Source of the DNA: Candidatus Thalassarchaeaceae archaeon
Lineage (GTDB): Archaea > Thermoplasmatota > Poseidoniia > Poseidoniales > Thalassarchaeaceae
Direction of reading: 5' to 3'
DNA: 64,000 nucleotides
Assembly (NCBI GenBank): GCA_023268715.1
Contig: JALRLV010000003.1
Location: 321-64,320 of the forward strand
Shown here piece by piece: positions 5,447 through 22,392 of this stretch. Positions within the stretch are counted from its first letter, which is position 1. Every line of letters begins with the position of its first letter. The position numbers were made by a program, and so were the translations under genes. The notes under the pieces are model-generated. The model saw nothing but the letters and a program-made list of their open reading frames with translations. It had not been told where the DNA came from and did not search any database.

Positions 5447-5447
5447 A

Positions 5448-6323: not shown

Positions 6324-6473
6324 CAATATACCCCCTTTCGCTTTATGCGCTATAATCACTCCATATAGGGGCGACCCAAGGAGTCTGAGACTTCCCTAAG
6401 GGTCTAACTTAGCATTAATTAGTTGACAAACAAAGCATAGACTCATCAGAGATAAGTTTCTCGATTTGTATCA

Positions 6474-7529
6474 ATGAGAGAGCTGTTGATGGGTGTATTG
6501 CTCATTATTTCCAGTTGTTCAGGTTGTTTAGAAGTCCCAATCGAAGATTGTGAAGATACCGATTGCTTTCCTTTCAATAATGATCTTCTAAACGAATTAC
6601 TTTCAAATCCAAACTCTCTCGATGTTTTGTTATTAGCGTCTGAAAATTCTAAACTCCGTGTTAAGTCATCAACCACTTACGAAACGGAAACTCAACAAGG
6701 AGAAATACATTGGAATGTAGCAAAAGATGACGAACAAAACCTTCGTTCAATCGCATTGAGGTTCAGTATCGGAACTAGTTCTATAGATACTGAAGTTATC
6801 GAAGGTACCGAAACCACCAACATTAGATTGGGTAATGTTTGGTATCAGGGAAGGGATGCAATTCCTGACTACAAGGATCCGTTCTATGAAATCGCCCAGC
6901 AAGCTACTGAAGACCCTGATGGCTTTTGGCCGTCTTTTGGATTTGACACTACCTCGATTTCAGGCCTTGAATGGACAATAACCCACGATGTCCAATCTCT
7001 TGAACAGGTCGCAAGTGCTCAAAATGAAACCCATAGCATAATTCTTGTATTGAAAGGAATGCCTCCTGAACTAATTGGCGTGGAATTGTATGGCAACGAC
7101 GATTCTGCTTTTGTTTTGAGTATCGAGAAAGGAGACGATGTGCAATTAATTCTTCAACCGGATTTACCCAAAGCCGCGATCGAATTCAATATTGAAGACC
7201 CAGTGGAATTGTCCGATGGGTCTACAATCTGGACAGGATATGTGCCCAGTGGTTTTACCTCTGAAGTTAATCCAGCGGATCTGACTTTCCATGTTCTAGA
7301 ATCAGAAGCAACAATCATGGAGTTTAATCTCGCGGATTTGACATTGAATCAAACTGATGAATATGGCGATTGGTGGGAGTTTCTCTATCTGGATTATTCA
7401 GGAGATGGATATTTCTCATCATCCGATTATTATGAAATTCGCACGAATTCTCCGAGAGTTGTTTCAATTAGAACCTATGATAGTTGGGCGGATTCTTGGA
7501 CCGGAGACATAACCAACTCTAATGATTGA
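6474..7529 (+). CDS. Predicted secreted lipoprotein of unknown function
   Basis: 351 aa. A short hydrophobic N-terminus (LLMGVLLIISSCSGC) ends in a lipobox-like Ser-Gly-Cys, so the mature protein is probably lipid-anchored outside the membrane, with residues after about Cys 18 exposed. The mature part is acidic and polar with alternating beta-like segments. I recognise no domain. The near-C-terminal run YLDYSGDGYFSSSDYYEI looks like a single calcium-binding loop (DYSGDGYFSSSD). It stands alone between the divergent NAD kinase-like gene and the ABC exporter. No Shine-Dalgarno is evident, so the mRNA may be leaderless. Confidence 0.75.
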   Translation: MRELLMGVLLIISSCSGCLEVPIEDCEDTDCFPFNNDLLNELLSNPNSLDVLLLASENSKLRVKSSTTYETETQQGEIHWNVAKDDEQNLRSIALRFSIGTSSIDTEVIEGTETTNIRLGNVWYQGRDAIPDYKDPFYEIAQQATEDPDGFWPSFGFDTTSISGLEWTITHDVQSLEQVASAQNETHSIILVLKGMPPELIGVELYGNDDSAFVLSIEKGDDVQLILQPDLPKAAIEFNIEDPVELSDGSTIWTGYVPSGFTSEVNPADLTFHVLESEATIMEFNLADLTLNQTDEYGDWWEFLYLDYSGDGYFSSSDYYEIRTNSPRVVSIRTYDSWADSWTGDITNSND

Positions 7530-7596
7530 TTTTCTCAAGAAAAGTACCTCTGTTTGTTAGGACAGATTCAAACACCGTCCGTAGGTAGAGACCCAT

Positions 7597-9372: not shown

Positions 9373-9381
9373 GGCTGAAAT

Positions 9382-9798
9382 ATGACTGATGAATTGAGTG
9401 TCCCAAAATTAACTAAATTGGCGGAAACAATAGGATTTGAAATAACAGAATTTACTCCAGGTAAGTGTATAGTTGAATTAACTATCAGAGAAGACCATCT
9501 AAACGCCGGAGGCGTAGCCCACGGAGGACTACATGCTACATTGTTAGATACAGCGATGGGTGGGACATTAGTGACAACTTTACCGAAGGAAGAGTGGTGT
9601 GCTACAGCACAATTGGATCTATCATATCTCGAACCTGCTTATGTCGGTTCTCATCTTATTGCGATTGGCGAAGTAGTCCGCAGGGGTCGAAATTTAGCCC
9701 ATTTACAAGGTGAAATCACAGACCAAAATGGAAAGAAAATCGCTCACGCAAGAGGCACTTGGGCAGTTTGGGAAAAGAAACCAAGTAGTCTTGTTTGA
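9382..9798 (+). CDS. PaaI-family hotdog thioesterase
   Basis: 138 aa, a single hotdog domain. The segment GGVAHGGLHATLLDTAMGG is the PaaI/YbgC-like motif, with the HGG loop and the acidic residue (D) on the central helix that activates water. Family members hydrolyse acyl-CoA thioesters, often aryl-CoAs. The gene lies 9 bases after the ABC exporter stop and is probably co-transcribed with it. The physiological acyl-CoA is unknown. Confidence 0.88.
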   Translation: MTDELSVPKLTKLAETIGFEITEFTPGKCIVELTIREDHLNAGGVAHGGLHATLLDTAMGGTLVTTLPKEEWCATAQLDLSYLEPAYVGSHLIAIGEVVRRGRNLAHLQGEITDQNGKKIAHARGTWAVWEKKPSSLV

Positions 9799-9850
9799 TT
9801 TGACTATGACGGCAAAGGATTGATGACGACCGGCTCGTTCGACATTCTCG

Positions 9851-10183
9851 ATGGCGAGGTCTGACTCTCTCATTTTCTTCCTTACCGGATTTGCCCAATT
9901 AATCATTGCATCAGAAATTGAAACTGCACTGTTGGCAGCCGTTCTCCAGGGGACTGGTAGTGGTATGCTTGCTTTAGGAGTGTATTTCCTAATCTTTGTC
10001 GCCAGAAATCACAAAGAATTTTCAGACACATACTCCAAATCAGAAAAGACAGTACTAGTTAGGGATCCGGTTACCGGGAAATTATCAAGAGAGGACGCTA
10101 CTCCTGTCGTAAATAAGGCCTTGATGTATGGAGGTCCAACCGCCCTAACTTTCTTGGCCGCCCTATTCTGGTTGGCTAATTGA
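9851..10183 (+). CDS. Small membrane protein, unknown
   Basis: 110 aa with hydrophobic segments at about residues 8-25, 31-50 and 91-108, and a polar loop of about 40 residues between the second and third (NHKEFSDTYSKSEKTVLVRDP). No family recognised. It is the first of three successive membrane-protein genes (9851, 10208, 10525) leading to the flotillin gene, which suggests a membrane-organisation or stress role, but that is context only. ATG 9851 is assumed as start. Confidence 0.65.
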   Translation: MARSDSLIFFLTGFAQLIIASEIETALLAAVLQGTGSGMLALGVYFLIFVARNHKEFSDTYSKSEKTVLVRDPVTGKLSREDATPVVNKALMYGGPTALTFLAALFWLAN

Positions 10184-10207
10184 GGTGACCTCCTGTCGAG
10201 TAAGGGT

Positions 10208-10468
10208 ATGTCGGATAGAGTTGATGATGTAATCAATAATCCAGCATACGAAATGCTGGGGGGGTACCATATTTTCCTTCGAAGAATGTTGATACCAATT
10301 TTCATTATTCTAATTGCTTTATTGGTATGGACAATTACTGAACCATATATTTCCTCGTCTCTTGTGCACAAAGTCGTCACTGCGGTAATCACAGGACTGT
10401 CTTTAGGGCCAGTGACGAATTTTGATCGGGGAGTCGCGGAATGGCTGAGACGTAGGAATAAAGCCTGA
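10208..10468 (+). CDS. Small membrane protein, unknown
   Basis: 86 aa. An amphipathic N-terminus is followed by a strong helix (MLIPIFIILIALLVWTI), a second weaker hydrophobic stretch, and a basic C-terminus (WLRRRNKA). No family recognised. It starts 24 bases after the previous small gene and precedes the NfeD-like gene, in the same direction as flotillin. The alternative of a non-coding stretch is less likely, because the frame is clean and the protein has typical membrane-protein composition. Confidence 0.62.
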   Translation: MSDRVDDVINNPAYEMLGGYHIFLRRMLIPIFIILIALLVWTITEPYISSSLVHKVVTAVITGLSLGPVTNFDRGVAEWLRRRNKA

Positions 10469-10524
10469 ACTCCCGCCTAAATCCGGCGAAGCAATCAAAG
10501 CAATATGCTCGCGTGCGGTATTCA

Positions 10525-11124
10525 ATGGTATCCATAGACGACTTCAATTTGGTGGAACTGGTTTTCGGTGAATCTGGTTCGACACTAGAATTGATTTTTG
10601 CCGCGTCAGCACTAATCGGAGGTGTTCTATTCCTGTTTTGGTTCCTCTTGATGCTCATAGGAGGTGTCGGAGAGGGTCTGTTTGAGGGTCTATTTGGAAT
10701 CGAATTCGATGTAATGAGTTCTGACGGTGCTTTCGACGCTATGACTTTCCAAGGTGTAATGGCATTCATGATGTTCTTCGGCCTTTCTGGTTTATACACA
10801 CTAAAGTCCGATGGGGGGGATACTCTAGCCATTGGCGTGGGTGGAGTTGCTGGATTAGCCTCGATGTACGGAACTGGCAAAATCTTCCAACTATTCTTTT
10901 CATTGGAAGCTAGCGGAAATGTCGAAATGGAGCAAGCTATTGGGGTGAAAGGGTCTGTTTATCTTAGAATTCCAGAAGGTGACGTTGGTCAAGTTACTAT
11001 CGAAGTAGGAGGTGCTCAGAAGACCTACAATGCAAAATCCGAGGATGGTCAAGGTATAGCCACAGGAGAATTTATCGAGGTTGTTGATATCATTAGTTCA
11101 ACTTTGGTAGTAAAGAGAGTTTAG
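10525..11124 (+). CDS. NfeD/YuaF-like membrane protein with OB-fold tail
   Basis: About 199 aa. Hydrophobic segments near residues 25-45 and 75-120 anchor it. The C-terminal 65 residues (from GVKGSVYLRIPEG to TLVVKRV) have the short beta-strand pattern of the NfeD OB fold, as in YuaF and YqiJ. In bacteria such proteins are encoded beside flotillins and act with them in membrane microdomains; here the flotillin gene starts 87 bases downstream. ATG 10525 is preferred over GTG 10513. Family call by pattern and neighbour, moderately sure. Confidence 0.72.
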   Translation: MVSIDDFNLVELVFGESGSTLELIFAASALIGGVLFLFWFLLMLIGGVGEGLFEGLFGIEFDVMSSDGAFDAMTFQGVMAFMMFFGLSGLYTLKSDGGDTLAIGVGGVAGLASMYGTGKIFQLFFSLEASGNVEMEQAIGVKGSVYLRIPEGDVGQVTIEVGGAQKTYNAKSEDGQGIATGEFIEVVDIISSTLVVKRV

Positions 11125-11128
11125 ACCC

Positions 11129-11136
11129 TTTTTTTT
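11129..11136 (+). terminator. Oligo-T tract after the NfeD-like gene
   Basis: Eight consecutive T lie 5 bases after the stop of the NfeD-like gene. Oligo-T runs act as intrinsic terminators in euryarchaea, so the flotillin gene may have its own promoter. No strong stem precedes it. Confidence 0.45.
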
Positions 11137-11154
11137 CGACCCCCTATGAAGACC

Positions 11155-11164
11155 GTGCCGGCAC
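11155..11164. promoter_or_regulatory. 10-bp perfect palindrome upstream of flotillin
   Basis: GTGCCGGCAC is a perfect palindrome in the 86-base spacer between the NfeD-like gene and flotillin, about 47 bases before the flotillin ATG. It could be an operator half-site pair, but a 10-base palindrome can arise by chance and no partner copy was seen in the window. Confidence 0.25.
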
Positions 11165-11210
11165 AGCCTTAATGAGTCGTGAGCGTTTGTGTTGATACAG
11201 AGCGATTGCT

Positions 11211-12602
11211 ATGGCTGAAGCTGGTGCACTACTAACAATAATGATGTTCGCAACCATACTATTCTTGGTTGCAATTGTGATATTCTTTGCGCAGAGGTAC
11301 AAAAGATGTCCTCCTGATAAGGTAATGGTAGTTTACGGTCGTACCGATAAGGGTAAGGCAAGTAGGACAATACACGGGGGTGCAGCCCTAGTATGGCCGC
11401 TTATTCAGGACTATGCCTTCCTTACTTTGACGCCAATTACCATTAACATCGATCTAAGGAATGCTCTTTCGCTTCAGAACATCAGAATTAACGTTCCATC
11501 TACATTCACAATCGGTGTTTCAACCGAGAAGCAAATTATGGCCAATGCAGCTGAGCGTTTGCTTGGACTAAAACAAAATGACATTGAAGAAATGGCTAAG
11601 GAAATCATCTTCGGTCAACTTCGTCTTACTGTAGCATCCTTGACAATCGAGCAGATTAACCAAGACCGTGACGCATTCCTAGAATTGACAAGGAGGAACG
11701 TAGATACAGAATTGCAGAAAGTTGGACTGTATCTGATTAACGTTAACCTGGTAGATATTACCGATGAATCCGACTATATCGAGAGTATCGGTAAGAAGGC
11801 TGCCTCAACCGCCGTCGAGAATGCACGTGTTGACGTAGCAAACGCTGAGCGTGACGGTGCCGTCGGTGCAGCAGTTGCAAACCGAACCAAGGAGATCGAG
11901 GTTGCAAAGAACCTAGCAGAGGCGGAGAAGGGTCGAAAGACTGCAGAAGCCGATCAACGTGTTTACGTAGGTCAGCAAGAAGCTCTCGCAGTTTCTGGTG
12001 AGAACAGTGCAAAGGCGGAAATCGCTCAATCGGATGCTGATTTAGCAGAAGCAGAAGCCTCCGCAAACCAGCGTGCAGAGGTTGCAACCGCTATTTCCGA
12101 GGCTGAGATTCAAAAAGCCAAGTTCACAGAAGAAGAAGAGCGTTTGAAGGCTAGCGAAATTGTACGCGAGCAGATTCAGAAGCAGCAAATCGAAATTGCT
12201 GCCGAAGCAGAGGCAGAAAGACAACGTCGTATCGCTCGTGGTGAAGCAGATGCAATTCTTGCTCGCTACGAAGCAGAGGCTTCTGGTGTTCAGAAAGTTC
12301 TCGAAGCGAAAGCCGCAGGTTACAAAGGTCTTGTTGGCAGTGCTGGCGGAGATGCAAAGGCCGCAGCTACACTTTTGATGGTTGAGAAGATTGACCAAAT
12401 GGTATCGGCACAAGTCGAAGCAATTCGTAACTTGAAGATTGATAGCATCACTGTATGGGATTCAGGCGGAGATGGAGATGGAAGTTCAACTTCCAACTTT
12501 ATTTCCAATCTCGTAAAGTCACTACCTCCTTTACATGACATCGCGTCAAATGCTGGAGTAGACCTGCCTGATTACCTAGGTTCAATGTCTGACGACGATT
12601 GA
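11211..12602 (+). CDS. Flotillin-like SPFH-domain membrane scaffold
   Basis: 463 aa. An N-terminal helix (about residues 5-28) anchors it. The SPFH/band-7 domain follows (about 30-200; VMVVYGRTDKGKASRTIHGG at its start), then a long Ala/Glu/Gln-rich coiled coil (about 200-350) with many AEAE and EAEA repeats. The tail is Gly/Ser/Asp-rich and ends in acidic residues (MSDDD). This is the YuaG/FloT architecture. Flotillins form oligomeric membrane scaffolds. The NfeD-like gene upstream supports the call. ATG 11211 lacks a clear ribosome site. Confidence 0.9.
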   Translation: MAEAGALLTIMMFATILFLVAIVIFFAQRYKRCPPDKVMVVYGRTDKGKASRTIHGGAALVWPLIQDYAFLTLTPITINIDLRNALSLQNIRINVPSTFTIGVSTEKQIMANAAERLLGLKQNDIEEMAKEIIFGQLRLTVASLTIEQINQDRDAFLELTRRNVDTELQKVGLYLINVNLVDITDESDYIESIGKKAASTAVENARVDVANAERDGAVGAAVANRTKEIEVAKNLAEAEKGRKTAEADQRVYVGQQEALAVSGENSAKAEIAQSDADLAEAEASANQRAEVATAISEAEIQKAKFTEEEERLKASEIVREQIQKQQIEIAAEAEAERQRRIARGEADAILARYEAEASGVQKVLEAKAAGYKGLVGSAGGDAKAAATLLMVEKIDQMVSAQVEAIRNLKIDSITVWDSGGDGDGSSTSNFISNLVKSLPPLHDIASNAGVDLPDYLGSMSDDD

Positions 12603-12673
12603 ATTTAATCGAGAATAGGGCTATCCCTCAAGGATAGTCAGCCTCTTGAACGGGTGTTATCTCGGAGGTAACA

Positions 12674-13906
12674 ATGAGCGAAGACGTCGTAATAATTGGC
12701 GGGGCTAGAACTCCCTTTTGTGAGTGGCTTGGGGGGAAACGTGGAGACGGTGAAGCAGGTGGAAGATTAGCCGATGTAACCGCTGAGCAGTTAGGTTCCA
12801 TTGCAATTCGAGGGGCTCTTGAAAAGACTGGAACTAGTCCAAAGTCCATCGACCACTTAGTGATGGGCCACGCATTACAGACAAGCGATCAGGCTATTTT
12901 TGGTGCTCGGCATGCAGGACTTAATGCAGGAATCCCACAAGAGGTTCCAATGCTTACCCTAAACCGATTGTGTGGCTCGGGAATCCAATCAATAATTTCA
13001 GCCTCCCATATGATTATGCTTGGTGAGGCTGAAACTGTCGTTGCTGGTGGAATGGAAAACCTAAGCCAAGCGCCTCACGTACTCAGAGGAATGCGTTCTA
13101 CCTACAAATTAGGTAGACCGCCAAGAGAGGGTGATGAACTTCCCAAAGATATGGAAGATTATCTCTTCACCAATTTGCTAGACACCACTTGTGACTCCTT
13201 CATGGCCCAAACTAGTGATGAAATCTGTCGTCGAGTCGGCGTCACTAGAGAAGAAGCCGATGCCTTTGCAGCAATTAGCCATTCAAGAACCGAAAACAGT
13301 GTAGATAATGGAGTATGGATTGACGAAATTGTTGATGTTGAAACTCCTAATGGATTAGTCACCGCAAACGAAGAAGATCACTTTGTAAGAGGCACTAGTG
13401 CTGAATCTCTTGCTTCATTAAGAACACATTTTGGCCCCACTTCTTTGGTTACTGCCGGAAATGCATCTGGTGTTGTCGACGGGGCGGCAGCTGTAGTGCT
13501 CAAGTCCGCATCTAAGGCTGCCTCGGATGGTGACACACCAATAGCTAGGATAGTCAACTGGGGGATTGTTGGACTTGAACCTGTAATCATGGCCTATGGG
13601 CCAGTACCGGCTAGCAAATTAGCTCTTGAAAGAGCAGGGATGAGTGTGGAAGATATCGATTTGTGGGAAATCAACGAAGCCTTTGCGGGCCAAGCAGTTG
13701 CTTGCATGAAAGAATTAGGAATTTCACATGAGATTGTAAACATCAACGGGGGGGCAGTAGGACTAGGCCATCCTCTAGCAGCAACTGGAAGCCGCCTCAC
13801 ACTCACTTTAGCACATACACTCAAGCGAGAAGACAAGAAATTTGGAATTGCAACCGCCTGTATCGGCGGCGGGCAAGGAATCGCAATTATCCTAGAATCG
13901 GTGTAA
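12674..13906 (+). CDS. Acetyl-CoA acetyltransferase (thiolase)
   Basis: 410 aa, the normal thiolase length. The acylated cysteine lies in LNRLCGSGIQSI (about residue 98), the catalytic histidine in NINGGAVGLGHPLAATGSR, and the second cysteine in TACIGGGQG near the C-terminus; NEAFAGQA is also conserved. It makes acetoacetyl-CoA from acetyl-CoA or cleaves 3-ketoacyl-CoA. Archaeal thiolases often feed the mevalonate pathway, but no HMG-CoA synthase gene is adjacent, so a fatty-acid or amino-acid breakdown role is equally possible. A good Shine-Dalgarno (ggaggt, 12664-12669) sets the ATG. Confidence 0.94.
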   Translation: MSEDVVIIGGARTPFCEWLGGKRGDGEAGGRLADVTAEQLGSIAIRGALEKTGTSPKSIDHLVMGHALQTSDQAIFGARHAGLNAGIPQEVPMLTLNRLCGSGIQSIISASHMIMLGEAETVVAGGMENLSQAPHVLRGMRSTYKLGRPPREGDELPKDMEDYLFTNLLDTTCDSFMAQTSDEICRRVGVTREEADAFAAISHSRTENSVDNGVWIDEIVDVETPNGLVTANEEDHFVRGTSAESLASLRTHFGPTSLVTAGNASGVVDGAAAVVLKSASKAASDGDTPIARIVNWGIVGLEPVIMAYGPVPASKLALERAGMSVEDIDLWEINEAFAGQAVACMKELGISHEIVNINGGAVGLGHPLAATGSRLTLTLAHTLKREDKKFGIATACIGGGQGIAIILESV

Positions 13907-13961
13907 ATTTAACAACACTAGGTTAGGAAGGGGTTAACTAGGAGCTCCAATTAGTCATCTT

Positions 13962-14216
13962 ATGTCTGAACACATACCCGGTACAGGACACGCGAATAGA
14001 ACACGTAGCCTCGTCAAGACACTTACTTGGAGGACAGTAGCTACTACAGATACAATCCTAATAGCAAGAGTACTTACAGGAAGTTGGACCGTTGGATTCG
14101 GAATTGCTAGTATTGAAGTATTAACAAAAATGGTTCTATACTACTTTCACGAAAGAGCTTGGAGTGCCTCTGATTGGGGATTGGAAGACGTACCATTGGA
14201 TACCGCCACTGCCTAA
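13962..14216 (+). CDS. DUF2061 small membrane protein
   Basis: 84 aa. The pattern RSLVKTLTWRTVATTDTIL then ASIEVLTKMVLYYFHERAW is the DUF2061 signature (two membrane helices linked by a short loop). Function is unknown. In bacteria DUF2061 proteins are sometimes encoded near sulfate-assimilation genes, and here the gene converges on the sulfur block: its stop overlaps the TauE stop by 4 bases. I treat that link as suggestive only. Confidence 0.85.
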   Translation: MSEHIPGTGHANRTRSLVKTLTWRTVATTDTILIARVLTGSWTVGFGIASIEVLTKMVLYYFHERAWSASDWGLEDVPLDTATA

Positions 14217-15025
14217 TTTAAATTCTCAAAAACATCGATTAAATATCGTATTAGAGAAAGGCTAACTGCTACCAAGTAAGGGAAAGTTAGAACCCTTTGT
14301 GGCAGCATAAGGATGGCGGTTTTCGCACCCGCCCATGCGATTACTAGAACAATTAGTGGTAAAGCAAGAGAAAGTGTGTTAAATTTGGTAATTTCATCTA
14401 TCAATAACGGGTTAAACAGTAAATGAGATACTATCGCTACAGGGACAACTCTCATGACAATCAAGTAAGAAGTTCCTGCTGCTTTATGTGGACCTAAGCC
14501 AAGGACAATTCTGTTCAGCATGGTGAAGATAACTCCTCCTCCAATGCCGATTAGTCCTGCAGATAATCCACCGGCTAGACACCCTAATTTGTATTTGTAG
14601 AGTAATGCTCCTCCAACAGTGACTTCCTCATCATGAATATCATTATGTTGATCTTCAATTAGTTTCTTTATGCCACGATATATTACCAATATGAGCAAAA
14701 CAATTGCTAAAATTTTGATTATACTTTCTCCGGCTTCAGCAATTATCCGATCAGCGGCTAAGGCCCCGACAATCGCCCCACATATGGCTACAATCCTACC
14801 TTTACGTCCTACTCCAGCAACAGTATACCCTCCCTCATCATGAGCTCTGCGTGAACCTATGCTGACGAACCAAACTAGAATCAATGAACAAACAATTGAA
14901 AGTTGCAATTCCATACCTAAAATGAAGTAAAGAGTTGGAACAAATAGGAATCCGCCACCTAGTCCAAGTGGAGCGAAAACGAAGGCGGTGACGAGTATTA
15001 TCGCAAGAGCAATGAATTCCTCCAA
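14213..15025 (-). CDS. TauE/SafE family sulfite/organosulfonate exporter
   Basis: 270 aa with about eight hydrophobic helices. Both repeats of the TauE/SafE motif are visible: LGLGGGFLFVPTLYFILGM near residue 22 and LIGIGGGVIFTMLNRIVLGLGPHKAAGTS near residue 160. The family moves sulfite, sulfoacetate or similar anions across the membrane. The TTG start at 15025 overlaps the stop of the molybdopterin oxidoreductase gene (TAATTG), so it is the last gene of the sulfur run and translationally coupled. A paralogue is at 21592, at the other end of the block. Confidence 0.9.
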   Translation of the reverse strand: MEEFIALAIILVTAFVFAPLGLGGGFLFVPTLYFILGMELQLSIVCSLILVWFVSIGSRRAHDEGGYTVAGVGRKGRIVAICGAIVGALAADRIIAEAGESIIKILAIVLLILVIYRGIKKLIEDQHNDIHDEEVTVGGALLYKYKLGCLAGGLSAGLIGIGGGVIFTMLNRIVLGLGPHKAAGTSYLIVMRVVPVAIVSHLLFNPLLIDEITKFNTLSLALPLIVLVIAWAGAKTAILMLPQRVLTFPYLVAVSLSLIRYLIDVFENLN

Positions 15026-17758
15026 TTACTCACTCTCCGGCATATACCAATGCTGTTTCTGAGGAGGGAGTGGTCGCTTCATCCATAGTGGTCGGCGTTC
15101 TCCTCTAGGATGAGTTTCTCGTTCTTTTGCCCATTCATTCCACCGTTTATAATACTCAAACGACTTGTTCCGATCAACTTCTATATCTCCATATTCCTCA
15201 CCCTCTCTAGGTAGGGATAAACGCACTTTCTGGAGCCAACAATGCGCTCCGGAAATCGGGTCAGGTTGAACAGCATGGGTGATGTTTTGGTGAACCCCAC
15301 CGTCTCGCCACCAAATGCGGTTGGTGTCGGGATCATCGGATTTCCATGGCTCAACTCCACTAATTGTTTTCATGCGCATTTTCCCATCACCTCGATCCTC
15401 AATTTCAACGGTGTTGGTAAGGAACCGATTACCTCGATCTTGTTCTCTTCTCCATCTTCCAATGTGGTGCGAGCAACCTACAACTCCTGGTTTGATCCCC
15501 TCTGTGACCCAGACTTTATCGACAAACCAACCAATTTCTGTTTCTATCTTCAGAAGGTCTCCTTCGGCCACGCCGAGTTTCCTTGCATCCTTGGGGTGAA
15601 TCCAGATTGGGTTTCTATGAGCGATTTCAACTAACCACTTTGCATTAGCTGAGCGTGAATGTATGTGCTGTGGCAATCTGAAATTTGGAAGAAGGCAATA
15701 TTCATCTTCACCGGATAAATTATCAGGATGTACGTGAGATTTCTGTCGATAATGAGGGATCGAATGCTCAGGATAGCCGAATTCAATCATTGTCTCTGAG
15801 TAGAATTCCTGCTTACCACTTGGAGTTGGCCAACCCTCCGTCTTGTGCTTTTCATAGGTTGACTCTTCGATTAGGAAAGCACCATGTCTGCGCATGTAAC
15901 CGAGTGCATCAGTACCTTCTTTTTCAGCAGCCTCTGGTAAACCAGGAACCCTTTCAAAGAGATACTGGTAATACTCATCCACTGTGATTTTTTCTCCCTC
16001 TCTGTATGGACTCATGAAATGATCCCTAATGCCCATTGTACCATCATCAATACGCCAAGATAATTCAATCCAGAACTCATCTTCCTCCCACACCTCTCCA
16101 GGATTTATTTCGTGGGTGAACTCAACTTCCTTACCTTCACGCCTAGCGTATTCCCTTAGCACTGGTTGCCTGAACGCTACCCATTTTCCTGCCGATGTGG
16201 CGTATGAATTTACATCGTGTCTTTCAGAGGCGTGCCCCATTGGCAAGACATAATCGGCAAAGAAGGCGGTTTCATTCCAAGTTGGTGTCAAAGCGATGTG
16301 GCAACCAATCGCCTCTTTGTTTTCTAGCATCTCAATCCAAGAGAAGCCGTCTGGATAGGTCCAAACTGGATTGAAAACGCGTGTGAAATAAACATCCATG
16401 GTACCTCTACCATCTTTTACTAAATGGGGTAGAATGTGGCTCATTTCGAAATGAGCGAGTGTGTATTCGGGGGGAAAATGCAGTTCGTTCCAACCATCGG
16501 GGTCTGGGGGGACATCGAATAGTGATGGTTTGAATTTCGACCATGAATTTGGACTTGTGCCGCCAACCGTTCCTACCGAGCCAGTCAGGACGTTTAGGAA
16601 ATGCAAGGTACGACTGACCTGCCAGCCTCCTAAGTTTCCAATCGCGGCACTGCGCCAGACATGAGTGCAAAGTTGACTGCCTGCATTAGCAACGACTTCT
16701 CCGGCTTCGATTACTTGCTCAACTGGAATTTTACATTCAGCTGCGGCAAATTCGGGAGTGTATTCTTCATATTCTTTCAATAATAATTCGATGAATCTGT
16801 CAAAATCATTCGGTTCATTAGGGTGAACTGCGGACATCCACATTTCCCAATTTACCTGAGTTTCCATAAATTCTCTGTCATACAACTCTCTCTCGAGGAT
16901 CATCTTGGCCCAAGCGAGGAAGAGAGCGGGTTCGCTACCTGGCCATGTTGGTAACCAGTGATCAGCCATTGCCGCTGTGTTTGACAGTCGTGGGTCGATC
17001 ACGATTAGTTTCGCTCCATCCATCATGCCCTCGAGAATTCTTTGAGCATGAGGGTTGAAGTAATGTCCAGTTTCAAGATGAGAAGAAGTTAGCAAAATCA
17101 CCTTGGCATTTGTATGGTCTGGACTTGGCCTATCGTGTTTATGCCATAGAGCATAACCTGTTCTCGCTCCCGCCGAACAAATATTAGTGTGAGAATTGTG
17201 CCCATCAACACCCCATGCTTTCAAAACTCGGTTAGCATATCCCTCGTGGCCGGGTCTTCCGACGTGGTAAACGACTTTGTCGACACCTCCTGCTTTCAGA
17301 GAGGTGCGAATTTTCTCAGCAATTTCGTCCAAGGCTTGGTCCCATGTGATTTGTTCCCAACCACCTTCGCCTCTACCGCCAACCCTGCGAAGGGGGTGCA
17401 TTATACGCTCGGTATCCTGAATTTGATTAATCGTCGCGGGTCCTTTAGCACAATTCCTGCCTCTACTTCCAGGGTGATGTGGATTACCTTCGAATTTCGA
17501 CACCTCGCCCGAGTCTTTGTCGACGTATGCGAGTAGACCACATGCCGATTCGCAATTGAAGCAGGTTGTTGGGACTAGTGAGTAATTCTTCTCGACTCGA
17601 ACCGGCCAAGCATTAGCGTCCAACTCTGTGTGGTTGTGCCACTCGTCTGGGTGGGGGAATTTGCGTAGAGGTTGCAGGTTGCCACCCGCGTGTTGACGAT
17701 CGAGATTTGGGATGATGCGTAGTTTTTGCGCGATGTTCTCTATGAATGTCTTTCCCAT
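15026..17758 (-). CDS. Molybdopterin oxidoreductase catalytic subunit (SoeA/PsrA-like)
   Basis: 910 aa CISM-family enzyme with bis-MGD cofactor. Numbered from GTG 17767, cysteines 69, 72, 76 and 106 (CFNCESAC...NCAKG) form the N-terminal 4Fe-4S site, Cys 197 (NICSAG) is a candidate Mo ligand, and the last 200 residues form the dinucleotide-binding domain. No twin-arginine signal is present, so the protein should stay in the cytoplasm, as in SoeABC sulfite dehydrogenase and unlike periplasmic PsrA/PhsA. The FeS/NrfD partner lies directly upstream. A Shine-Dalgarno (gaggtg) favours ATG 17758. Substrate is inferred from neighbours (sulfite is the best guess); a tetrathionate, polysulfide or other substrate remains possible. 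Confidence 0.85.
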   Translation of the reverse strand: MGKTFIENIAQKLRIIPNLDRQHAGGNLQPLRKFPHPDEWHNHTELDANAWPVRVEKNYSLVPTTCFNCESACGLLAYVDKDSGEVSKFEGNPHHPGSRGRNCAKGPATINQIQDTERIMHPLRRVGGRGEGGWEQITWDQALDEIAEKIRTSLKAGGVDKVVYHVGRPGHEGYANRVLKAWGVDGHNSHTNICSAGARTGYALWHKHDRPSPDHTNAKVILLTSSHLETGHYFNPHAQRILEGMMDGAKLIVIDPRLSNTAAMADHWLPTWPGSEPALFLAWAKMILERELYDREFMETQVNWEMWMSAVHPNEPNDFDRFIELLLKEYEEYTPEFAAAECKIPVEQVIEAGEVVANAGSQLCTHVWRSAAIGNLGGWQVSRTLHFLNVLTGSVGTVGGTSPNSWSKFKPSLFDVPPDPDGWNELHFPPEYTLAHFEMSHILPHLVKDGRGTMDVYFTRVFNPVWTYPDGFSWIEMLENKEAIGCHIALTPTWNETAFFADYVLPMGHASERHDVNSYATSAGKWVAFRQPVLREYARREGKEVEFTHEINPGEVWEEDEFWIELSWRIDDGTMGIRDHFMSPYREGEKITVDEYYQYLFERVPGLPEAAEKEGTDALGYMRRHGAFLIEESTYEKHKTEGWPTPSGKQEFYSETMIEFGYPEHSIPHYRQKSHVHPDNLSGEDEYCLLPNFRLPQHIHSRSANAKWLVEIAHRNPIWIHPKDARKLGVAEGDLLKIETEIGWFVDKVWVTEGIKPGVVGCSHHIGRWRREQDRGNRFLTNTVEIEDRGDGKMRMKTISGVEPWKSDDPDTNRIWWRDGGVHQNITHAVQPDPISGAHCWLQKVRLSLPREGEEYGDIEVDRNKSFEYYKRWNEWAKERETHPRGERRPLWMKRPLPPQKQHWYMPESE

Positions 17759-17768
17759 CACATTCACC

Positions 17769-19181
17769 TCAGTGCAGAGTCTCCAACTGTGGCTTCATCA
17801 CGGTGTGATGTGCATGGCGGCAGACAATTGCCATAAGAAGCACGGCTGCGACCCATACAAGCAGCTCGGAAGAGGTTAGCAGAACCAGACTCGCCGCTCC
17901 GAGTACGAGCATCTCAGTGAGCATCTTTAGCGCTAGGAGTTTGTCTTTGGACCAAGTCCGCCCGCGCGCTTGGCCGAATAACCAAGCGGTGTAAACGCCG
18001 GTTAAAGTCGCCAGTGGAATTCCAAAGATAGCTAAATATTCGAGATATACTCGGTCAAAGTCAAATAACAAGATAATGCCACTAAGCGCCAATACACCTC
18101 CGAATGCACCCAGGATATAAGCGCCTCTCACAAGCCAGGAATTCCAATTCGGTCGGAGCATTACATAGAGGAATCTCTCTGGTCGGTCCAAGTCCTTGAC
18201 AAGCAGTAAACCTGTCAAACCCAAAAAAGCGATGCAGCCAATTACCAACTGCCACCACAACTTGTCAGTCATCTCCAAGAAGCCGGCGAACATTGCAAGC
18301 ATTGCAACTAGATATGCACCTGAAGCAATCGCCTTTGTTATGATGTAAGCCGATACTTCCCAACCCCAAAGAATGCCCTTCGAAGGCTGGTCATAACTGC
18401 GCTTCGGGCGCTCCGCTTGTTCATCCAAGCGTTCCATAACATCACGAATAATCGCCCTGTCACGTGGATTCGCAGCCCGAGCCTTCTTTTCAAGCGCCAA
18501 TTGCACAATCATCGAATTGGTATCTGCCGCGCCCAAGCGCGAATCTGCATATTTGGCAAAATGACCGACGCCTGCTGCCTGATCTGTCCACAGATATTCA
18601 CCAGAACGCTCCGTGGCATGGGGGTCGAGTATCTCATCACTCGTCTCAACATAATACACATTCGGCCGAGCCCCACTTTCTGGCTTTCTCACCGTCGTCT
18701 CATGGTCTTGTAGATATCCAGAAATTGAGGAATTCGGGTCATCTAGATCACCCGAGACAATCGCCTCGACTGGACAAACGATTACACAGGCCGGCTCATA
18801 AGAATGCTCAATCCGGTGGGCGCAATAATTGCACTTTGCAGCAGTGCCCTTGTTCGGATCGATGTACAAAGCATCGTAAGGACAAGCTTGCATACAAGAT
18901 TTGCATCCGATACAGCGATCATCATCGAAGTCGACAATCCCGTCCTCTCGTGTGAATAATGCAGTCGTCGGACAGATTGTCGTACAGGGTGAGTCCTCGC
19001 AATGATTGCACCTATGAACCGAGAATTCGCGCGTAACATCAGGATAAGTCCCCTTCTCGATGTACTTGACATGGGTCCTGTTTACTCCAATTGGAACGTC
19101 GTGTTCTGACTTACAAGCAACAGTACAAGCGTGACAGCCAATGCATTTTCTGTTGTCTATTACAAATCCGAAATTTACCAA
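17769..19181 (-). CDS. Fused FeS electron-transfer and NrfD membrane subunit
   Basis: 470 aa. Residues 1-160 are a four-cluster ferredoxin subunit with 16 cysteines in four groups (CIGCHACTVAC, CNHCEDSPCTTIC, CIGCKSCMQAC, CNYC...CVIVC). Residues about 270-465 form an NrfD/PsrC-type domain with many membrane helices, including the signature DLDRPERFLYVMLRP. In DMSO reductase, Psr, Soe and similar complexes these are normally separate B and C subunits; here they are one chain. It would take electrons between the molybdenum subunit and the quinone pool. Base composition is visibly more GC-rich than the upstream dioxygenase gene. Confidence 0.9.
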   Translation of the reverse strand: MVNFGFVIDNRKCIGCHACTVACKSEHDVPIGVNRTHVKYIEKGTYPDVTREFSVHRCNHCEDSPCTTICPTTALFTREDGIVDFDDDRCIGCKSCMQACPYDALYIDPNKGTAAKCNYCAHRIEHSYEPACVIVCPVEAIVSGDLDDPNSSISGYLQDHETTVRKPESGARPNVYYVETSDEILDPHATERSGEYLWTDQAAGVGHFAKYADSRLGAADTNSMIVQLALEKKARAANPRDRAIIRDVMERLDEQAERPKRSYDQPSKGILWGWEVSAYIITKAIASGAYLVAMLAMFAGFLEMTDKLWWQLVIGCIAFLGLTGLLLVKDLDRPERFLYVMLRPNWNSWLVRGAYILGAFGGVLALSGIILLFDFDRVYLEYLAIFGIPLATLTGVYTAWLFGQARGRTWSKDKLLALKMLTEMLVLGAASLVLLTSSELLVWVAAVLLMAIVCRHAHHTVMKPQLETLH

Positions 19182-19205
19182 AGTACCACCTCTGTTAGAT
19201 GACTT

Positions 19206-20354
19206 CTAATTTAACATGTGACTTGCAGCACATTCATTCTTCCCTAAATCCATGACATTTTGTTCGTCATCAGAGGGCGCAATTAATCCAGCGTTAACCT
19301 TTCTAATTTCGTTGTAAACTGCCGGTTGTTCTCGCATATTCTCTACTATAAATTGAATAAATTCTTCTTCGTCATCTATTGAATAGATTTTTTCATTTAT
19401 TTGTTTGACTGTTGCAAAATCATTCATTATTATGAAATCATCATCGGATTCGTTTTCCCAGTCTGTATAATGGCCGGGAAGGACTAATAATGAATCTGGA
19501 AGAACTCCAATTCTATGCTTCAGAGTTTCATATAATCGGGACGCCCACTCTACGACTTTCTTTCCCAAATCAGGTCTTCCAACTGAGACAATAAATACAG
19601 TATCACCTGAAATCATGAATTTTTCGTCGATAACATATGTGGTAGAACCGGGGGTATGCCCGGGTGAATGAGTTACTAATATCTCAGGTCCAGTTCCATT
19701 ATTCATAACGATTTTTTCTCCATCTTGAACCGGTCGATAATTTACGTGTGAACCAGAATAATCCTCTTCATGGGCGAGGTATTGAACGCCGGCTTTTTCA
19801 CTAAGTCTAGGTCCACCTGAGATGTAATCTGCTTGTAGATGAGTTTCGAAAACGTGACTGATTTCGACGCCGAGTTTTTTGGCAAAGGAAAGATAAAAAT
19901 CAACATTTCTAGATGCATCGAAAATGGCTAATTCTCTACCAGATAATAGCCCATAAGAGCACGAAGCCTTACCTGGTCTGTTGAACTGCCAGAGGTTGTA
20001 ATTTGAAAGGGTTGGGATTTGCTTAGGAATCAATACATTTCCCCAAGAAACAATTCCTTCCTGAAGCCATAAGACGTCTGCAAAACCCTGCTGTTCAAGT
20101 GTTTCTGCGACGAATTTCGCTGAACCCTCTTTAGCACAAATTACCCTGATTGGCAAATCTTTAGGCAATCTAGCCGAAGCAAGGGATGGATTTTCAATGA
20201 AATCAAAATATGGAATGTTGATAAGAGATATTTCATTAGGTCCTTCCACCGAAAATCTGGAAAAGTCTTCTTCATTTCTGACATCGAGATAAATCATAGA
20301 TTCATCTTCTTCAATCCACTTGTACAAATCTTTAGCGGTATAAGATCCGTTCAT
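19206..20354 (-). CDS. Rhodanese-persulfide dioxygenase (ETHE1-type) fusion
   Basis: 382 aa. Residues 1-110 are a rhodanese domain with active-site Cys 73 (CAKEGS). The rest is a metallo-beta-lactamase fold. The three ETHE1 iron ligands are present: His 172 (THLQADY), His 233 (HSPGHTPGS) and Asp 251 (ISGDTVF). The common HxHxDH motif reads H-L-Q-A-D-Y, so the second-metal residues are gone, as expected for a mono-iron enzyme. It would oxidise a low-molecular-weight or protein persulfide to sulfite. The rhodanese is N-terminal, unlike CstB or the Burkholderia fusion, where it is C-terminal. Gene is AT-rich. Confidence 0.87.
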   Translation of the reverse strand: MNGSYTAKDLYKWIEEDESMIYLDVRNEEDFSRFSVEGPNEISLINIPYFDFIENPSLASARLPKDLPIRVICAKEGSAKFVAETLEQQGFADVLWLQEGIVSWGNVLIPKQIPTLSNYNLWQFNRPGKASCSYGLLSGRELAIFDASRNVDFYLSFAKKLGVEISHVFETHLQADYISGGPRLSEKAGVQYLAHEEDYSGSHVNYRPVQDGEKIVMNNGTGPEILVTHSPGHTPGSTTYVIDEKFMISGDTVFIVSVGRPDLGKKVVEWASRLYETLKHRIGVLPDSLLVLPGHYTDWENESDDDFIIMNDFATVKQINEKIYSIDDEEEFIQFIVENMREQPAVYNEIRKVNAGLIAPSDDEQNVMDLGKNECAASHMLN

Positions 20355-20365
20355 TTAATCTCAAC

Positions 20366-20869
20366 CTACATGAATAATTGAATGTCAGCATCCATGGCGA
20401 AATCCAAGAAGGCTGCTGCGCCAGCATAAGATATCCCTTCGATAAAATCCTTCTCTTCAAACCCAAAAACATCCATGGTCATCTGACAAGCTATGAGGTC
20501 TACACCTAAGTCTAGACACATGCCTCTAAGTTCGGTAATCGTAGCCACTCCTTTGTTTTTGAATTGTTTTTTCATTAACGCAGTTGCCATGCTGTCAAAT
20601 CCGGGAACGACTCCGCTTACTGCGTGTGGAATAGGCCAATCTATTGCTTGAAAACCCTTAGGTCCGAAAGGCATTTTCATAGGCATCGCGGGGTTGGCAG
20701 CAGGCGTAACTTTTGCCTCCAACTTTGGCTTCAAAAGGGGCAATCCGTAGAACGTAAAAAAAACCTTTACTTCCATTCCCATTGCTGCAGCTGTAGATGC
20801 TAGTATGAAGGGTGGATAGGCCCAATCTAGAGAACCCTGAGCGGCAATAATTGCCATTTTTTTCCCCAT
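20366..20869 (-). CDS. DsrE2-like sulfur carrier protein
   Basis: 167 aa of the DsrE/F/H-like family (DsrE2 group). The conserved cysteine sits in LIACQMTMDVFGF near residue 140; another conserved region is the N-terminal MAIIAAQGSLDWAYPP. In sulfur oxidisers DsrE2 passes sulfane sulfur between a rhodanese and TusA, and all three partners are encoded here in a row. The start directly follows the TusA stop (TGAATG), so the genes are coupled. The loop around residues 50-75 is rich in Pro, Met and Lys. Confidence 0.9.
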   Translation of the reverse strand: MGKKMAIIAAQGSLDWAYPPFILASTAAAMGMEVKVFFTFYGLPLLKPKLEAKVTPAANPAMPMKMPFGPKGFQAIDWPIPHAVSGVVPGFDSMATALMKKQFKNKGVATITELRGMCLDLGVDLIACQMTMDVFGFEEKDFIEGISYAGAAAFLDFAMDADIQLFM

Positions 20870-21109
20870 TCAATCACCTTTCTTGACAAGGAAGAAGTAT
20901 TCTCCATCTCCTTCTTCGGTCGCCAATAACTCATGCCCAACTCTAGATGCCCATGCTGGCATGTCTTTGCAGGAACCCGGGTCTGTGGTGGTGACTTTCA
21001 GTATCTGACCAGGTTCCATGGCATCTATCTTCATCTTGGTTTTTAATACAGGTAGGGGACAATTCATCCCAGAGCAGTCTATTATATCGTCGTGTTTTAC
21101 ATTATTCAT
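20870..21109 (-). CDS. tusA: TusA-family sulfur carrier
   Basis: 79 aa, full family length. The CPxP motif is present (DCSGMNCPLPVLKTK, Cys 17 as sulfur carrier), and a second cysteine lies in DPGSCKDMPAW. TusA proteins accept persulfide sulfur from rhodaneses or desulfurases. Position between ArsR and DsrE2 in a sulfur operon favours a dissimilatory or detoxifying role over tRNA thiolation. The start overlaps the ArsR stop by 8 bases. Confidence 0.93.
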   Translation of the reverse strand: MNNVKHDDIIDCSGMNCPLPVLKTKMKIDAMEPGQILKVTTTDPGSCKDMPAWASRVGHELLATEEGDGEYFFLVKKGD

Positions 21110-21524
21110 TTTTGTTCACCTCCATGAATGCATCAAGCAAGTGCACCCATTCACCAGTTCCTACTTTCTCAGAACACTCTGAGAAGCAACCAAACAATTT
21201 CCAGATAAACGGATTTTCAATCGAATAGTATCTCCGATTGCCATCTTTCCTGCATTCAAGGATCCCTCTTTCGTTCATTACGGATAGATGTTGTGAGGCT
21301 CTTGGTTGACTTATTTCAAGCTCCCTCTGAACTTGCCCCATTGTCATTTCCCCTTCTGACAATAATTGAATGATACTTAATCGGTCAGGATGTCCTAGCG
21401 TCCTCAACATAATCGCAGCCGCTTCTCTAAAGCGATATTCTCTGTCTATGCTATCTACCTCGGAGGACATCGTCATGTTCGCAATCGGCACTGCGTGAAG
21501 AATCAAGAATAAAAGAGTTTTCAT
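21102..21524 (-). CDS. ArsR-family winged-helix repressor
   Basis: About 140 aa. The winged helix is clear: LGHPDRLSIIQLLSEGEMTMGQVQRELEISQPRASQHLSVM, then the wing CRKDGNRRYYSI. It lacks the ELCVC metal site of ArsR/SmtB. Cysteines lie in the wing (about residue 91) and in a C-terminal FGCFSEC pair, which could sense persulfide or oxidation (inference). First gene of the sulfur run, so probably an autoregulated repressor. Start is uncertain: TTG 21530, ATG 21524, or ATG 21470/21476, which would drop a hydrophobic leader. A TATA-like element at 21547-21559 fits a leaderless mRNA from about 21525. Confidence 0.88.
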   Translation of the reverse strand: MKTLLFLILHAVPIANMTMSSEVDSIDREYRFREAAAIMLRTLGHPDRLSIIQLLSEGEMTMGQVQRELEISQPRASQHLSVMNERGILECRKDGNRRYYSIENPFIWKLFGCFSECSEKVGTGEWVHLLDAFMEVNKNE

Positions 21525-21546
21525 ATTCAAAGAAGGGAATATAAGA

Positions 21547-21559
21547 TTATTTTTATATA
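21547..21559. promoter_or_regulatory. AT-rich TATA-like element between divergent arsR and tauE
   Basis: The 67-base divergent spacer contains an AT-rich block (atttttatata on the plus strand). It is placed about 25-30 bases before the likely start sites on both sides, the archaeal TATA distance. A short palindrome CGCATGCG lies at 21572-21579, just before the plus-strand ATG, and could be part of an ArsR operator. Assigned by position and composition only. Confidence 0.4.
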
Positions 21560-21591
21560 CGAATGGTTGTGCGCATGCGGATTAGGCGAGT

Positions 21592-22392
21592 ATGATGCCC
21601 CTCGAAATATTGGTTGCGTTATTGCTAATTCTAACTGTTGCAGCTATATTTTCGCCGATAGGTCTGGGCGGAGGGATATTATTCGTTCCAATTCTCCATT
21701 ATTTACTTGGATTCTCTATGGAAAATTCAATGATCGGTTCCCTTTGTTTGGTTTGGATGGTTTCTCTTGGCTCGATGATTGCACACCACAGTGCAGGCCA
21801 AGATGATGTAGAATCCGCAAAATTAGGTATAATGATGTACGTTCCTTCAGCAATCATTGGCTCGATTATAGGGATATTTTTGGTTAACAGGGTTTCAGAT
21901 TTTTCGATTAAAATTTTGGTTGTAATTTTGATGCTCTTCATTTTGTATAATTCAATCCGACCAAATAAAAATGCAAAAACTATCTCAAATAAAAATCCCA
22001 ATTCGAGTTATGGTATTGGATGTGGGGTGGGTGGTTTGTCGGCAGGTTTACTCGGTATTGGTGGAGGTGCAGTCATGGTAATGCTTAGCAAAAGCTACGC
22101 AGGACTTGGATCACATTCAGCTGCAGGAAACAGTTATTCTGTTGAAGTAATAGGCGTGCCAGTAGCTCTTATTCTCCATATATTTGCAAGTGGCCACGCT
22201 CCAGAAATATCCAATCTAGGAATATACGTTCAAATTTTTCTTATTATGTTCACCGTAGCGCTAACGGCCTGGGTTGGAGCTAGAATTGGCATGAAGTTTT
22301 TACCCGATAAAGCGATAAATTTCGCCTATTTGACTATTGTAAGTATCGGTTTGTTGAGCTATCTTAACGATATAATTGTGAATTTGTTGTAA
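21592..22392 (+). CDS. TauE/SafE family exporter, second copy
   Basis: 266 aa with about eight helices and both family repeats: IGLGGGILFVPILHYLLGF near residue 24 and LLGIGGGAVMVMLSKSYAGLGSHSAAGNS near residue 155. It is a diverged paralogue of the gene at 14213. It is transcribed away from the arsR-led run and could share its control region. Expected role is export of sulfite or a related anion made by the persulfide dioxygenase. ATG 21592 or 21595. Confidence 0.9.
   Translation: MMPLEILVALLLILTVAAIFSPIGLGGGILFVPILHYLLGFSMENSMIGSLCLVWMVSLGSMIAHHSAGQDDVESAKLGIMMYVPSAIIGSIIGIFLVNRVSDFSIKILVVILMLFILYNSIRPNKNAKTISNKNPNSSYGIGCGVGGLSAGLLGIGGGAVMVMLSKSYAGLGSHSAAGNSYSVEVIGVPVALILHIFASGHAPEISNLGIYVQIFLIMFTVALTAWVGARIGMKFLPDKAINFAYLTIVSIGLLSYLNDIIVNLL

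What the first reader, a model, noticed from the sequence alone, without database searches (positions are those of the whole stretch)
13962..22392. Complete cytoplasmic sulfane-sulfur oxidation module in a presumed MGII archaeon
One block encodes ArsR, TusA, DsrE2, a persulfide dioxygenase-rhodanese, a fused FeS-NrfD subunit, a Tat-less molybdopterin enzyme and two TauE exporters. The parts form a path: sulfur transfer, persulfide to sulfite, sulfite to sulfate or export, with electrons to the quinone pool. MGII are usually viewed as heterotrophs, so this suggests mixotrophic sulfur use or sulfide/persulfide detoxification. It is the best candidate for an undescribed system here.
Basis: partly seen in the sequence, partly recalled or inferred. 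Interest (0 to 1): 0.78.

Follow-up and report, generated by a model that had tools for sequence, protein, structure and literature searches.

The report
Archaeal sulfite-burning island with persulfide feeder
A common ocean archaeon (Marine Group II) carries a seven-gene operon, acquired from bacteria, that most likely turns sulfur stripped from cysteine into sulfite and then sulfate and passes the electrons to respiration; relatives fill the same chromosomal spot with a transporter family tied to sulfite resistance, which supports the idea that the spot is for getting rid of sulfite.

Summary
The genes are real and correctly named. The host is a Thalassarchaeaceae (MGIIb) genome. TauE1, a 913-aa cytoplasmic Mo enzyme, a fused FeS-NrfD protein, a rhodanese/persulfide dioxygenase, DsrE2, TusA and ArsR form one tight operon, with TauE2 divergent. 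It is not an assembly artefact: a congener has the identical block, and the Mo enzyme is in 40 of 97 Poseidoniales genomes. It is not wholly undescribed: the bacterial version is published in Marinimicrobia as 'psrABC', and an MGII Mo-enzyme/FeS/TraB set was noted as possible DMSO respiration.

New here: (1) MGII acquired the Mo enzyme once, from the Marinimicrobia lineage. (2) The MGII NrfD anchor is clipped from 8 to 6 membrane helices. (3) The persulfide half is optional: intact in about 10 genomes, decaying in one. (4) At the same site other Thalassarchaeaceae carry YeiH (a sulfite-resistance family) instead; MoA in 35/59, YeiH in 12/59, both in none. (5) MoA genomes without the persulfide half usually have a cysteine dioxygenase (24/28); those with it usually lack one (2/7). 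These point to sulfite as substrate and cysteine as sulfur source. SQR was not found, so chemolithotrophic mixotrophy is weakly supported. Substrate and direction remain biochemically untested.

The parts
13962..14216 (+). DUF2061 membrane protein; flank gene that stays at the site when the island is absent
   Evidence: PF09834; adjacent to TraB in the empty sites L152, L153, L157
14213..15025 (-). TauE1, sulfite-exporter family protein, last gene of the operon
   Evidence: PF01925, 77 bits; next to MoA in many relatives, next to YeiH where MoA is absent
15026..17767 (-). MoA: 913-aa cytoplasmic molybdopterin (Cys-ligated Mo, 4Fe-4S) catalytic subunit, proposed sulfite dehydrogenase
   Evidence: PF04879, PF00384, PF01568; HTNICSAGAR and no signal peptide across phyla; 40/97 Poseidoniales
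17769..19181 (-). BC: four [4Fe-4S] electron-transfer domain fused to a clipped (6-helix) NrfD quinone-reactive anchor
   Evidence: Fer4_11 + NrfD; 16 invariant Cys; 6 TM helices at pLDDT mostly >90 versus 8 in the bacterial homologue; nearest folds PsrB and PsrC
19206..20354 (-). Rhodanese + metallo-beta-lactamase fusion, proposed persulfide dioxygenase with the variant motif ETHLQADYISG
   Evidence: PF00581 + PF00753; nearest PDB chains 3tp9 and 3r2u (MBL proteins of the CstB/PDO type); motif in all 20 MGII/Marinimicrobia members, one with V for I
20366..20869 (-). DsrE2 sulfur carrier (CQMTM cysteine)
   Evidence: NF047629, 211.6 bits against a cut-off of 210; motif conserved
20870..21109 (-). 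TusA sulfur carrier (CPLP)
   Evidence: PF01206; a second TusA exists at C33:124704
21102..21530 (-). ArsR-family regulator, first gene of the operon; proposed persulfide/sulfite sensor
   Evidence: NF033788 above cut-off, weaker hit to BigR; Cys in the last helix conserved in the MGII and Marinimicrobia members
21592..22392 (+). TauE2, divergent sulfite-exporter family protein
   Evidence: PF01925, 89 bits; syntenic TauE2 in L139
22397..23557 (-). TraB/PrgY family protein, right-hand flank of the variable site
   Evidence: PF01963; conserved next to DHPS with and without the island
12674..13906 (+). Thiolase, left-hand flank of the variable site
   Evidence: PF00108/PF02803; conserved flank

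Best explanation
A sulfite-disposal island with an optional persulfide feeder. MoA plus the fused BC subunit form a cytoplasm-facing, membrane-tethered Soe-type molybdenum sulfite dehydrogenase: sulfite is oxidised to sulfate at the Cys-ligated Mo, and electrons run through one 4Fe-4S cluster in A and four in B to menaquinone at the retained first helix bundle of the clipped NrfD domain. TauE1 and TauE2 (inferred) vent excess sulfite or a related anion. In this genome and about ten others of 97, TusA and DsrE2 collect sulfane sulfur and pass it, through a low-molecular-weight persulfide, to the rhodanese-dioxygenase fusion, which makes the sulfite with O2; ArsR switches the operon on when persulfide rises. 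In most other carriers the sulfite probably comes from cysteine dioxygenase. Physiologically, a protein-eating aerobic archaeon burns the sulfur of dietary cysteine and salvages electrons. Shown: gene content, operon, family motifs, distribution, single origin of MoA, clipped anchor, site exchange with YeiH, complementarity with cysteine dioxygenase. Inferred: substrate, direction, electron acceptor, regulation, sulfur source.
For: Cytoplasmic Mo enzyme (no Tat signal) with Cys ligand and FeS/NrfD partner, features listed for SoeA. Operon with persulfide dioxygenase, DsrE2, TusA and TauE. Repeated neighbours of this Mo enzyme in other phyla: persulfide-dioxygenase-type MBL proteins in Marinimicrobia, Bacteroidota, Rhodococcus and haloarchaea, and TauE, SulP sulfate permease, YeeE and Mo-cofactor genes in several of these. 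Same-site exchange with YeiH: 35 MoA, 12 YeiH, 0 both in 59 genomes, Fisher p = 2.4e-6, both states within three genera; YeiH is the main driver of sulfite resistance in Salmonella (PMC12880088). Sulfite sources are complementary: cysteine dioxygenase in 24/28 MoA genomes without the block and 2/7 with it, p = 0.006. Menaquinone genes present; SQR not found; an O2-dependent feeder fits aerobic MGII (PMC6336850).
Against: No activity data. The closest solved enzyme by sequence is polysulfide/thiosulfate reductase, and the bacterial version is published as psrABC. No authentic SoeA sequence could be fetched, so clade membership is untested. Six MoA carriers (G002, G018, G019, G028, G071, G082) have neither the persulfide block nor a detected cysteine dioxygenase, though genomes are incomplete. 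Four genomes have the dioxygenase but neither MoA nor YeiH. Fisher tests ignore phylogeny. The dioxygenase could act on another thiol (3-mercaptopropionate dioxygenase is also a match). The persulfide dioxygenase motif is non-canonical (HxQxDY for HxHxDH), though the inferred iron ligands are kept.
Confidence: 0.62

Rival explanations
1. Chemolithoheterotrophy: the module oxidises environmental reduced sulfur (sulfide, thiosulfate, polysulfide) as a supplementary energy source.
For: Same gene set; the Bacteroidota locus L096 has YeeE-type sulfur transporters next to the operon; the dysoxic-water review considers facultative sulfur oxidation likely for one Marinimicrobia genome (PMC8359478).
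Against: No SQR-type protein among the own genome's Pyr_redox_2 hits (genome 86% complete). The persulfide half is lost in most relatives while the Mo enzyme stays. A cysteine dioxygenase is present in 41 of 59 Thalassarchaeaceae.
Confidence: 0.2
2. Polysulfide or sulfur reductase (PsrABC/Sre type): the complex takes electrons from quinol and reduces sulfane sulfur delivered by TusA/DsrE2.
For: Best PDB matches are PsrA, PsrB and PsrC; published reading for Marinimicrobia (PMC5688066); bacterial SreA clusters with SoeA (PMC10100899).
Against: No Tat signal and cytoplasmic location, unlike PsrA/PhsA; partnered with an O2-using dioxygenase family and sulfite-exporter families; aerobic host; site exchange with the sulfite-resistance family YeiH.
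Confidence: 0.12
3. The Mo enzyme oxidises another sulfur species directly, such as thiosulfate or protein-bound sulfane sulfur on DsrE2, rather than free sulfite.
For: In Rhodococcus DsrE2 and TusA sit immediately before the BC and MoA genes.
Against: MoA persists without TusA/DsrE2/PDO in most carriers, next to TauE, and trades place with YeiH.
Confidence: 0.08
4. DMSO (or other S/N-oxide) reductase for anaerobic respiration, the reading given earlier to an MGII Mo-enzyme locus.
For: Earlier annotation of an MGII contig (PMC6741140); same superfamily.
Against: Cys, not Ser, at the Mo-ligand position and no Tat signal; neighbours are sulfur-transfer and sulfite genes.
Confidence: 0.02
5. Assembly chimera or contamination: a bacterial operon wrongly joined to an archaeal contig.
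For: Bacterial nearest outgroup; an adapter remnant at window 30-49.
Against: Identical order and flanks in an independent genome (L139) and conserved flanks in many others; MGII sequences form one clade with 100% support.
Confidence: 0.01

Closest known systems
SoeABC sulfite dehydrogenase (Allochromatium vinosum; Aquifex aeolicus)
   Same: Cytoplasm-facing Cys-ligated Mo subunit, four-cluster FeS subunit, NrfD-type quinone-reactive anchor; sulfite as the presumed substrate
   Different: B and C are one polypeptide; the MGII anchor has 6 instead of 8 helices; linked to a persulfide operon and TauE; archaeal host (a published survey found only 5 archaeal bSreA/SoeA sequences, PMC10100899)
Marinimicrobia 'psrABC' cluster (PMC5688066)
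   Same: Orthologous MoA and BC (72-73% and 54-59% identity to the three loci measured), same ArsR-TusA-DsrE2-PDO-BC-MoA order in many loci
   Different: 8-helix NrfD, linked MoaA/MoaC/MobA genes; published as polysulfide reductase, whereas the present evidence favours sulfite oxidation
CstB/PRF-type rhodanese-persulfide dioxygenases
   Same: MBL dioxygenase plus rhodanese; presumed iron ligands His, His, Asp kept
   Different: Rhodanese domain N-terminal; conserved HLQADY in place of HxHADF/H
SqrR/BigR-type ArsR sensors
   Same: ArsR fold, linkage to persulfide genes, Cys in the last helix
   Different: The BigR alpha-2 cysteine is not conserved; extra Cys at other positions

Membership tests
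SoeABC sulfite dehydrogenase | Mo-bisMGD catalytic subunit with 4Fe-4S motif and Cys Mo ligand | tested here: met
   Fe4S4 and molybdopterin domains; HTNICSAGAR aligned with the Mo-ligand region
SoeABC sulfite dehydrogenase | Cytoplasmic, no Tat signal on the A and B subunits | tested here: met
   N-termini of MoA homologues without Tat across phyla; the ArxA-like outgroup has one; BC starts directly at the FeS domain
SoeABC sulfite dehydrogenase | B subunit with four [4Fe-4S] clusters | tested here: met
   16 invariant cysteines in 54 sequences
SoeABC sulfite dehydrogenase | NrfD-like anchor with 8 transmembrane helices | tested here: not met
   6 helices in MGII by model and hydropathy; 8 in the bacterial homologue
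SoeABC sulfite dehydrogenase | Catalytic subunit in the SoeA clade | not testable with these tools
   No authentic SoeA sequence could be fetched
SoeABC sulfite dehydrogenase | Sulfite:quinone activity | not testable with these tools
   Needs biochemistry
PsrABC/PhsABC | Tat-exported periplasmic catalytic subunit | tested here: not met
   No signal in the family
DMSO reductase (DmsA/DorA) | Ser Mo ligand | tested here: not met
   Cys at the ligand position; criterion from PMC10100899
Persulfide dioxygenase (ETHE1/CstB) | His, His, Asp mononuclear iron ligands in an MBL fold | tested here: met
   THL..., PGH and SGD residues conserved in the MGII/Marinimicrobia clade; ligand assignment from general knowledge of ETHE1
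Persulfide dioxygenase (ETHE1/CstB) | Canonical HxHxD(H/F) motif | tested here: not met
   HLQADY in all 20 MGII/Marinimicrobia members
SqrR/BigR persulfide sensor | Cysteine pair, one in alpha-2 and one in alpha-5 | tested here: not met
   Last-helix Cys conserved, alpha-2 partner absent in the BigR alignment
YeiH family (the exchanged gene) | TIGR00698 / PF03601 match | tested here: inconclusive
   PF03601 far above cut-off; TIGR00698 hit below its subfamily cut-off

The most novel reading that the evidence does not exclude
Thalassarchaeaceae keep a chromosomal 'sulfite slot' between thiolase/DUF2061 and TraB/DHPS that is filled either by a bacterially derived sulfite dehydrogenase with a six-helix NrfD anchor, reducing quinone without the helices assigned to one half of the ion path, or by a YeiH exporter, and that is fed by cysteine dioxygenase or by a persulfide dioxygenase module. 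Planktonic archaea would thus burn dietary cysteine sulfur to sulfate and collect its electrons.
Probability: 0.45. Interest if true: 0.72.

Novelty: new variant of a known kind. Interest (0 to 1): 0.57.

Why it matters
MGII are among the most common euryarchaea of the surface ocean and are seen as protein- and lipid-degrading heterotrophs. If right, many of them oxidise cysteine sulfur to sulfate as an extra electron source and detoxification, a sulfur flux not in current MGII models. The same reading suggests that the Marinimicrobia 'polysulfide reductase' works in the oxidative direction. The clipped NrfD is a natural test of whether quinone reduction can be separated from the proposed ion path of that family.

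Tried and rejected
The best-covering distant plasmid hit, Azoarcus (29%), has a Tat signal, a TorD chaperone gene and arsenic-resistance neighbours and looks like an ArxA; used only as outgroup. Chimera idea rejected by L139. The 'stops_inside: 1 TGA/TAA' flags for MoA in some relatives were read as end-of-gene stops for those held as loci (L013-L015, L017), since the ORF scan gives one full frame there; not pursued further. Promoter/terminator scan gave no excess over shuffles. The possibility that the window gained its persulfide block recently was considered: PDO, TusA and ArsR are simply faster evolving, and the L139 block is syntenic, so retention with repeated loss is preferred, though DsrE2 groups the window with G092 of another family.

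Full report
Observation. Seven of them, from ArsR to TauE1, lie on the minus strand with gaps of -8, 0, 11, 24, 1 and 0 nt, a tight operon; TauE2 is divergent, 61 nt from the ArsR open frame. A DUF2061 gene fills the low end of the interval. The window is part of contig 33 of a 1.55-Mb, 86%-complete genome; its closest named relatives are Candidatus Thalassarchaeum / Poseidoniales.

Mo enzyme. The 913-aa protein has the Fe4S4, molybdopterin and dinucleotide-binding domains. Its best solved relative is Thermus polysulfide/thiosulfate reductase, over part of the protein. Homologues from MGII, Marinimicrobia, Bacteroidota, haloarchaea, Rhodococcus and Thermomicrobium share the Mo-ligand motif HTN(I/V)CS and none shows a Tat signal, while an ArxA-like outgroup does. 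A published survey lists Cys ligation plus cytoplasmic location for SoeA and bacterial SreA, periplasmic location for PsrA/PhsA, and Ser ligation for the DMSO/TMAO reductases (PMC10100899).

Electron transfer and anchor. The partner protein is a fusion of a four-cluster FeS domain (16 invariant Cys) and an NrfD domain. The NrfD part is about 202 aa (median) in 67 MGII loci and about 268 aa in 35 bacterial and haloarchaeal loci. AlphaFold models, with the membrane helices at pLDDT mostly above 90 and the FeS part poorly modelled, give six transmembrane helices for MGII and eight for a Marinimicrobia homologue. Against solved PsrC the TM-score (normalised by PsrC) is 0.77 for the Marinimicrobia model and 0.53 for MGII. 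The NrfD review places the quinone site in helices 1-4 and the P-side ion half-channel in helices 5-8 (PMC8076601); by sequence, helices 1-4 are kept and two of the second bundle are lost. This clipping is, to my knowledge, unreported.

Persulfide half. DsrE2 (CQMTM) and TusA (CPLP) keep their cysteines. The rhodanese-MBL protein keeps the rhodanese Cys loop and the His, His and Asp expected to bind iron, but has ETHLQADYISG in all 20 MGII/Marinimicrobia members (one with V for I), unlike the ETHFHADF of Bacteroidota neighbours. ArsR has a conserved last-helix Cys but lacks the alpha-2 partner of BigR.

Distribution and origin. Strong MoA orthologues occur in 35 of 59 Thalassarchaeaceae and 5 of 38 other Poseidoniales genomes. 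In the MoA tree MGII are one clade (SH-aLRT 100) inside a Marinimicrobia assemblage; haloarchaea branch elsewhere. This fits one transfer from the Marinimicrobia lineage. The persulfide block is intact in about ten genomes, 9 of the 10 DsrE2 genomes also having MoA. A congener (L139) has exactly the window's order and flanks; G016 has lost DsrE2 and keeps a TusA remnant; G037 has lost the dioxygenase; the closest relatives of the window lack the block altogether.

The site. MoA-BC-TauE lies between thiolase/DUF2061 and TraB/DHPS. In G024, G034 and G052 the site is empty (L152, L153, L157). In G005, G021, G027, G031, G046 and G049 it holds a 325-370-aa YeiH-family gene followed by TauE; in G015 YeiH also follows TraB. 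The YeiH protein matches PF03601 strongly and TIGR00698 ('YeiH family putative sulfate export transporter') below cut-off. YeiH occurs in 12 of 59 genomes, MoA in 35, both in none (Fisher p = 2.4e-6, not corrected for relatedness), and three genera contain both states. [quoted passage not shown] Exchange of the Mo complex with this family, beside the same exporter, is the best genomic hint that the substrate is sulfite.

Sources of sulfite. The genome has a cysteine dioxygenase-family protein (PF05995) with a convergent aminotransferase gene next door, a plausible route cysteine -> cysteine sulfinate -> sulfite. Among Thalassarchaeaceae MoA carriers, the dioxygenase is in 24 of 28 without the persulfide block and 2 of 7 with it (p = 0.006); 11 of 12 YeiH genomes have it. 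No sulfide:quinone oxidoreductase was recognised among Pyr_redox_2 proteins. MqnA/D-type menaquinone genes and MoaC are present.

Neighbours elsewhere. Around the orthologous Mo enzyme, Marinimicrobia have ArsR-TusA-DsrE2-PDO upstream and MoaA, MoaC, TauE and MobA around it; Bacteroidota have SulP sulfate permeases, CstB-like dioxygenases and YeeE-type transporters; Rhodococcus has DsrE2, TusA, MBL and ArsR genes; haloarchaea have rhodanese-MBL, TauE and a Mo-cofactor guanylyltransferase.

Literature. The Marinimicrobia cluster is published as psrABC (PMC5688066); a later review asked for an unspecified sulfur function and found oxidation likelier for one member (PMC8359478). An MGII contig with molybdopterin oxidoreductase, ferredoxin and TraB was read as possible DMSO respiration (PMC6741140); that matches the gene content of the present site, but the contig was not compared here. 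The main MGII metabolic survey describes obligate aerobic heterotrophs with a core capacity to reduce sulfite to sulfide and does not describe this module in the passages read (PMC6336850).

Conclusion. A Soe-type sulfite dehydrogenase with an optional persulfide feeder is the best reading (0.62). It is a new variant of a known kind: fused B-C, clipped anchor, odd dioxygenase motif, archaeal host, and a sulfite-disposal site with exchangeable contents. Substrate and direction need enzymology.

Noticed in passing
window 1-49 (contig 33, about 321-369): An uncut Illumina adapter (ACACGACGCTCTTCCGATCT, exact match at 30-49) lies inside the contig, so the 320 bases to its left may be wrongly joined; it also puts a spurious peptide at the start of the first open frame.
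   Followed up: partly
L150-L160; G005, G015, G021, G027, G031, G046, G049: YeiH-family gene at the MoA-BC site beside TraB, in most cases followed by TauE, in MGII genomes without the Mo enzyme.
   Followed up: yes
L169 1237-3201 (G000 contig 44): Cysteine dioxygenase-family gene convergent with a PLP aminotransferase gene; the dioxygenase is found in 41 of 59 Thalassarchaeaceae and in none of the 38 genomes of the other family.
   Followed up: partly
L147 (G037) 3894-13961: About 10 kb separates ArsR-TusA-DsrE2 from BC-MoA and the dioxygenase is missing: a probable insertion or replacement inside the module.
   Followed up: no
L146 (G092) versus window 20366-20869: DsrE2 of a genome from another family is 91% identical to the window's although its MoA is only 80% identical, hinting at recombination of single genes between MGII families.
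   Followed up: partly
window 56719-63999+: Very large surface protein (over 2,400 aa, open at the window end) with TSP3 repeats and a transglutaminase-like domain.
   Followed up: no
window 21540-21592: A/T-rich TTTTTATATA box between the divergent ArsR and TauE2 genes; the ArsR start is probably one of the internal ATGs rather than the listed TTG.
   Followed up: no
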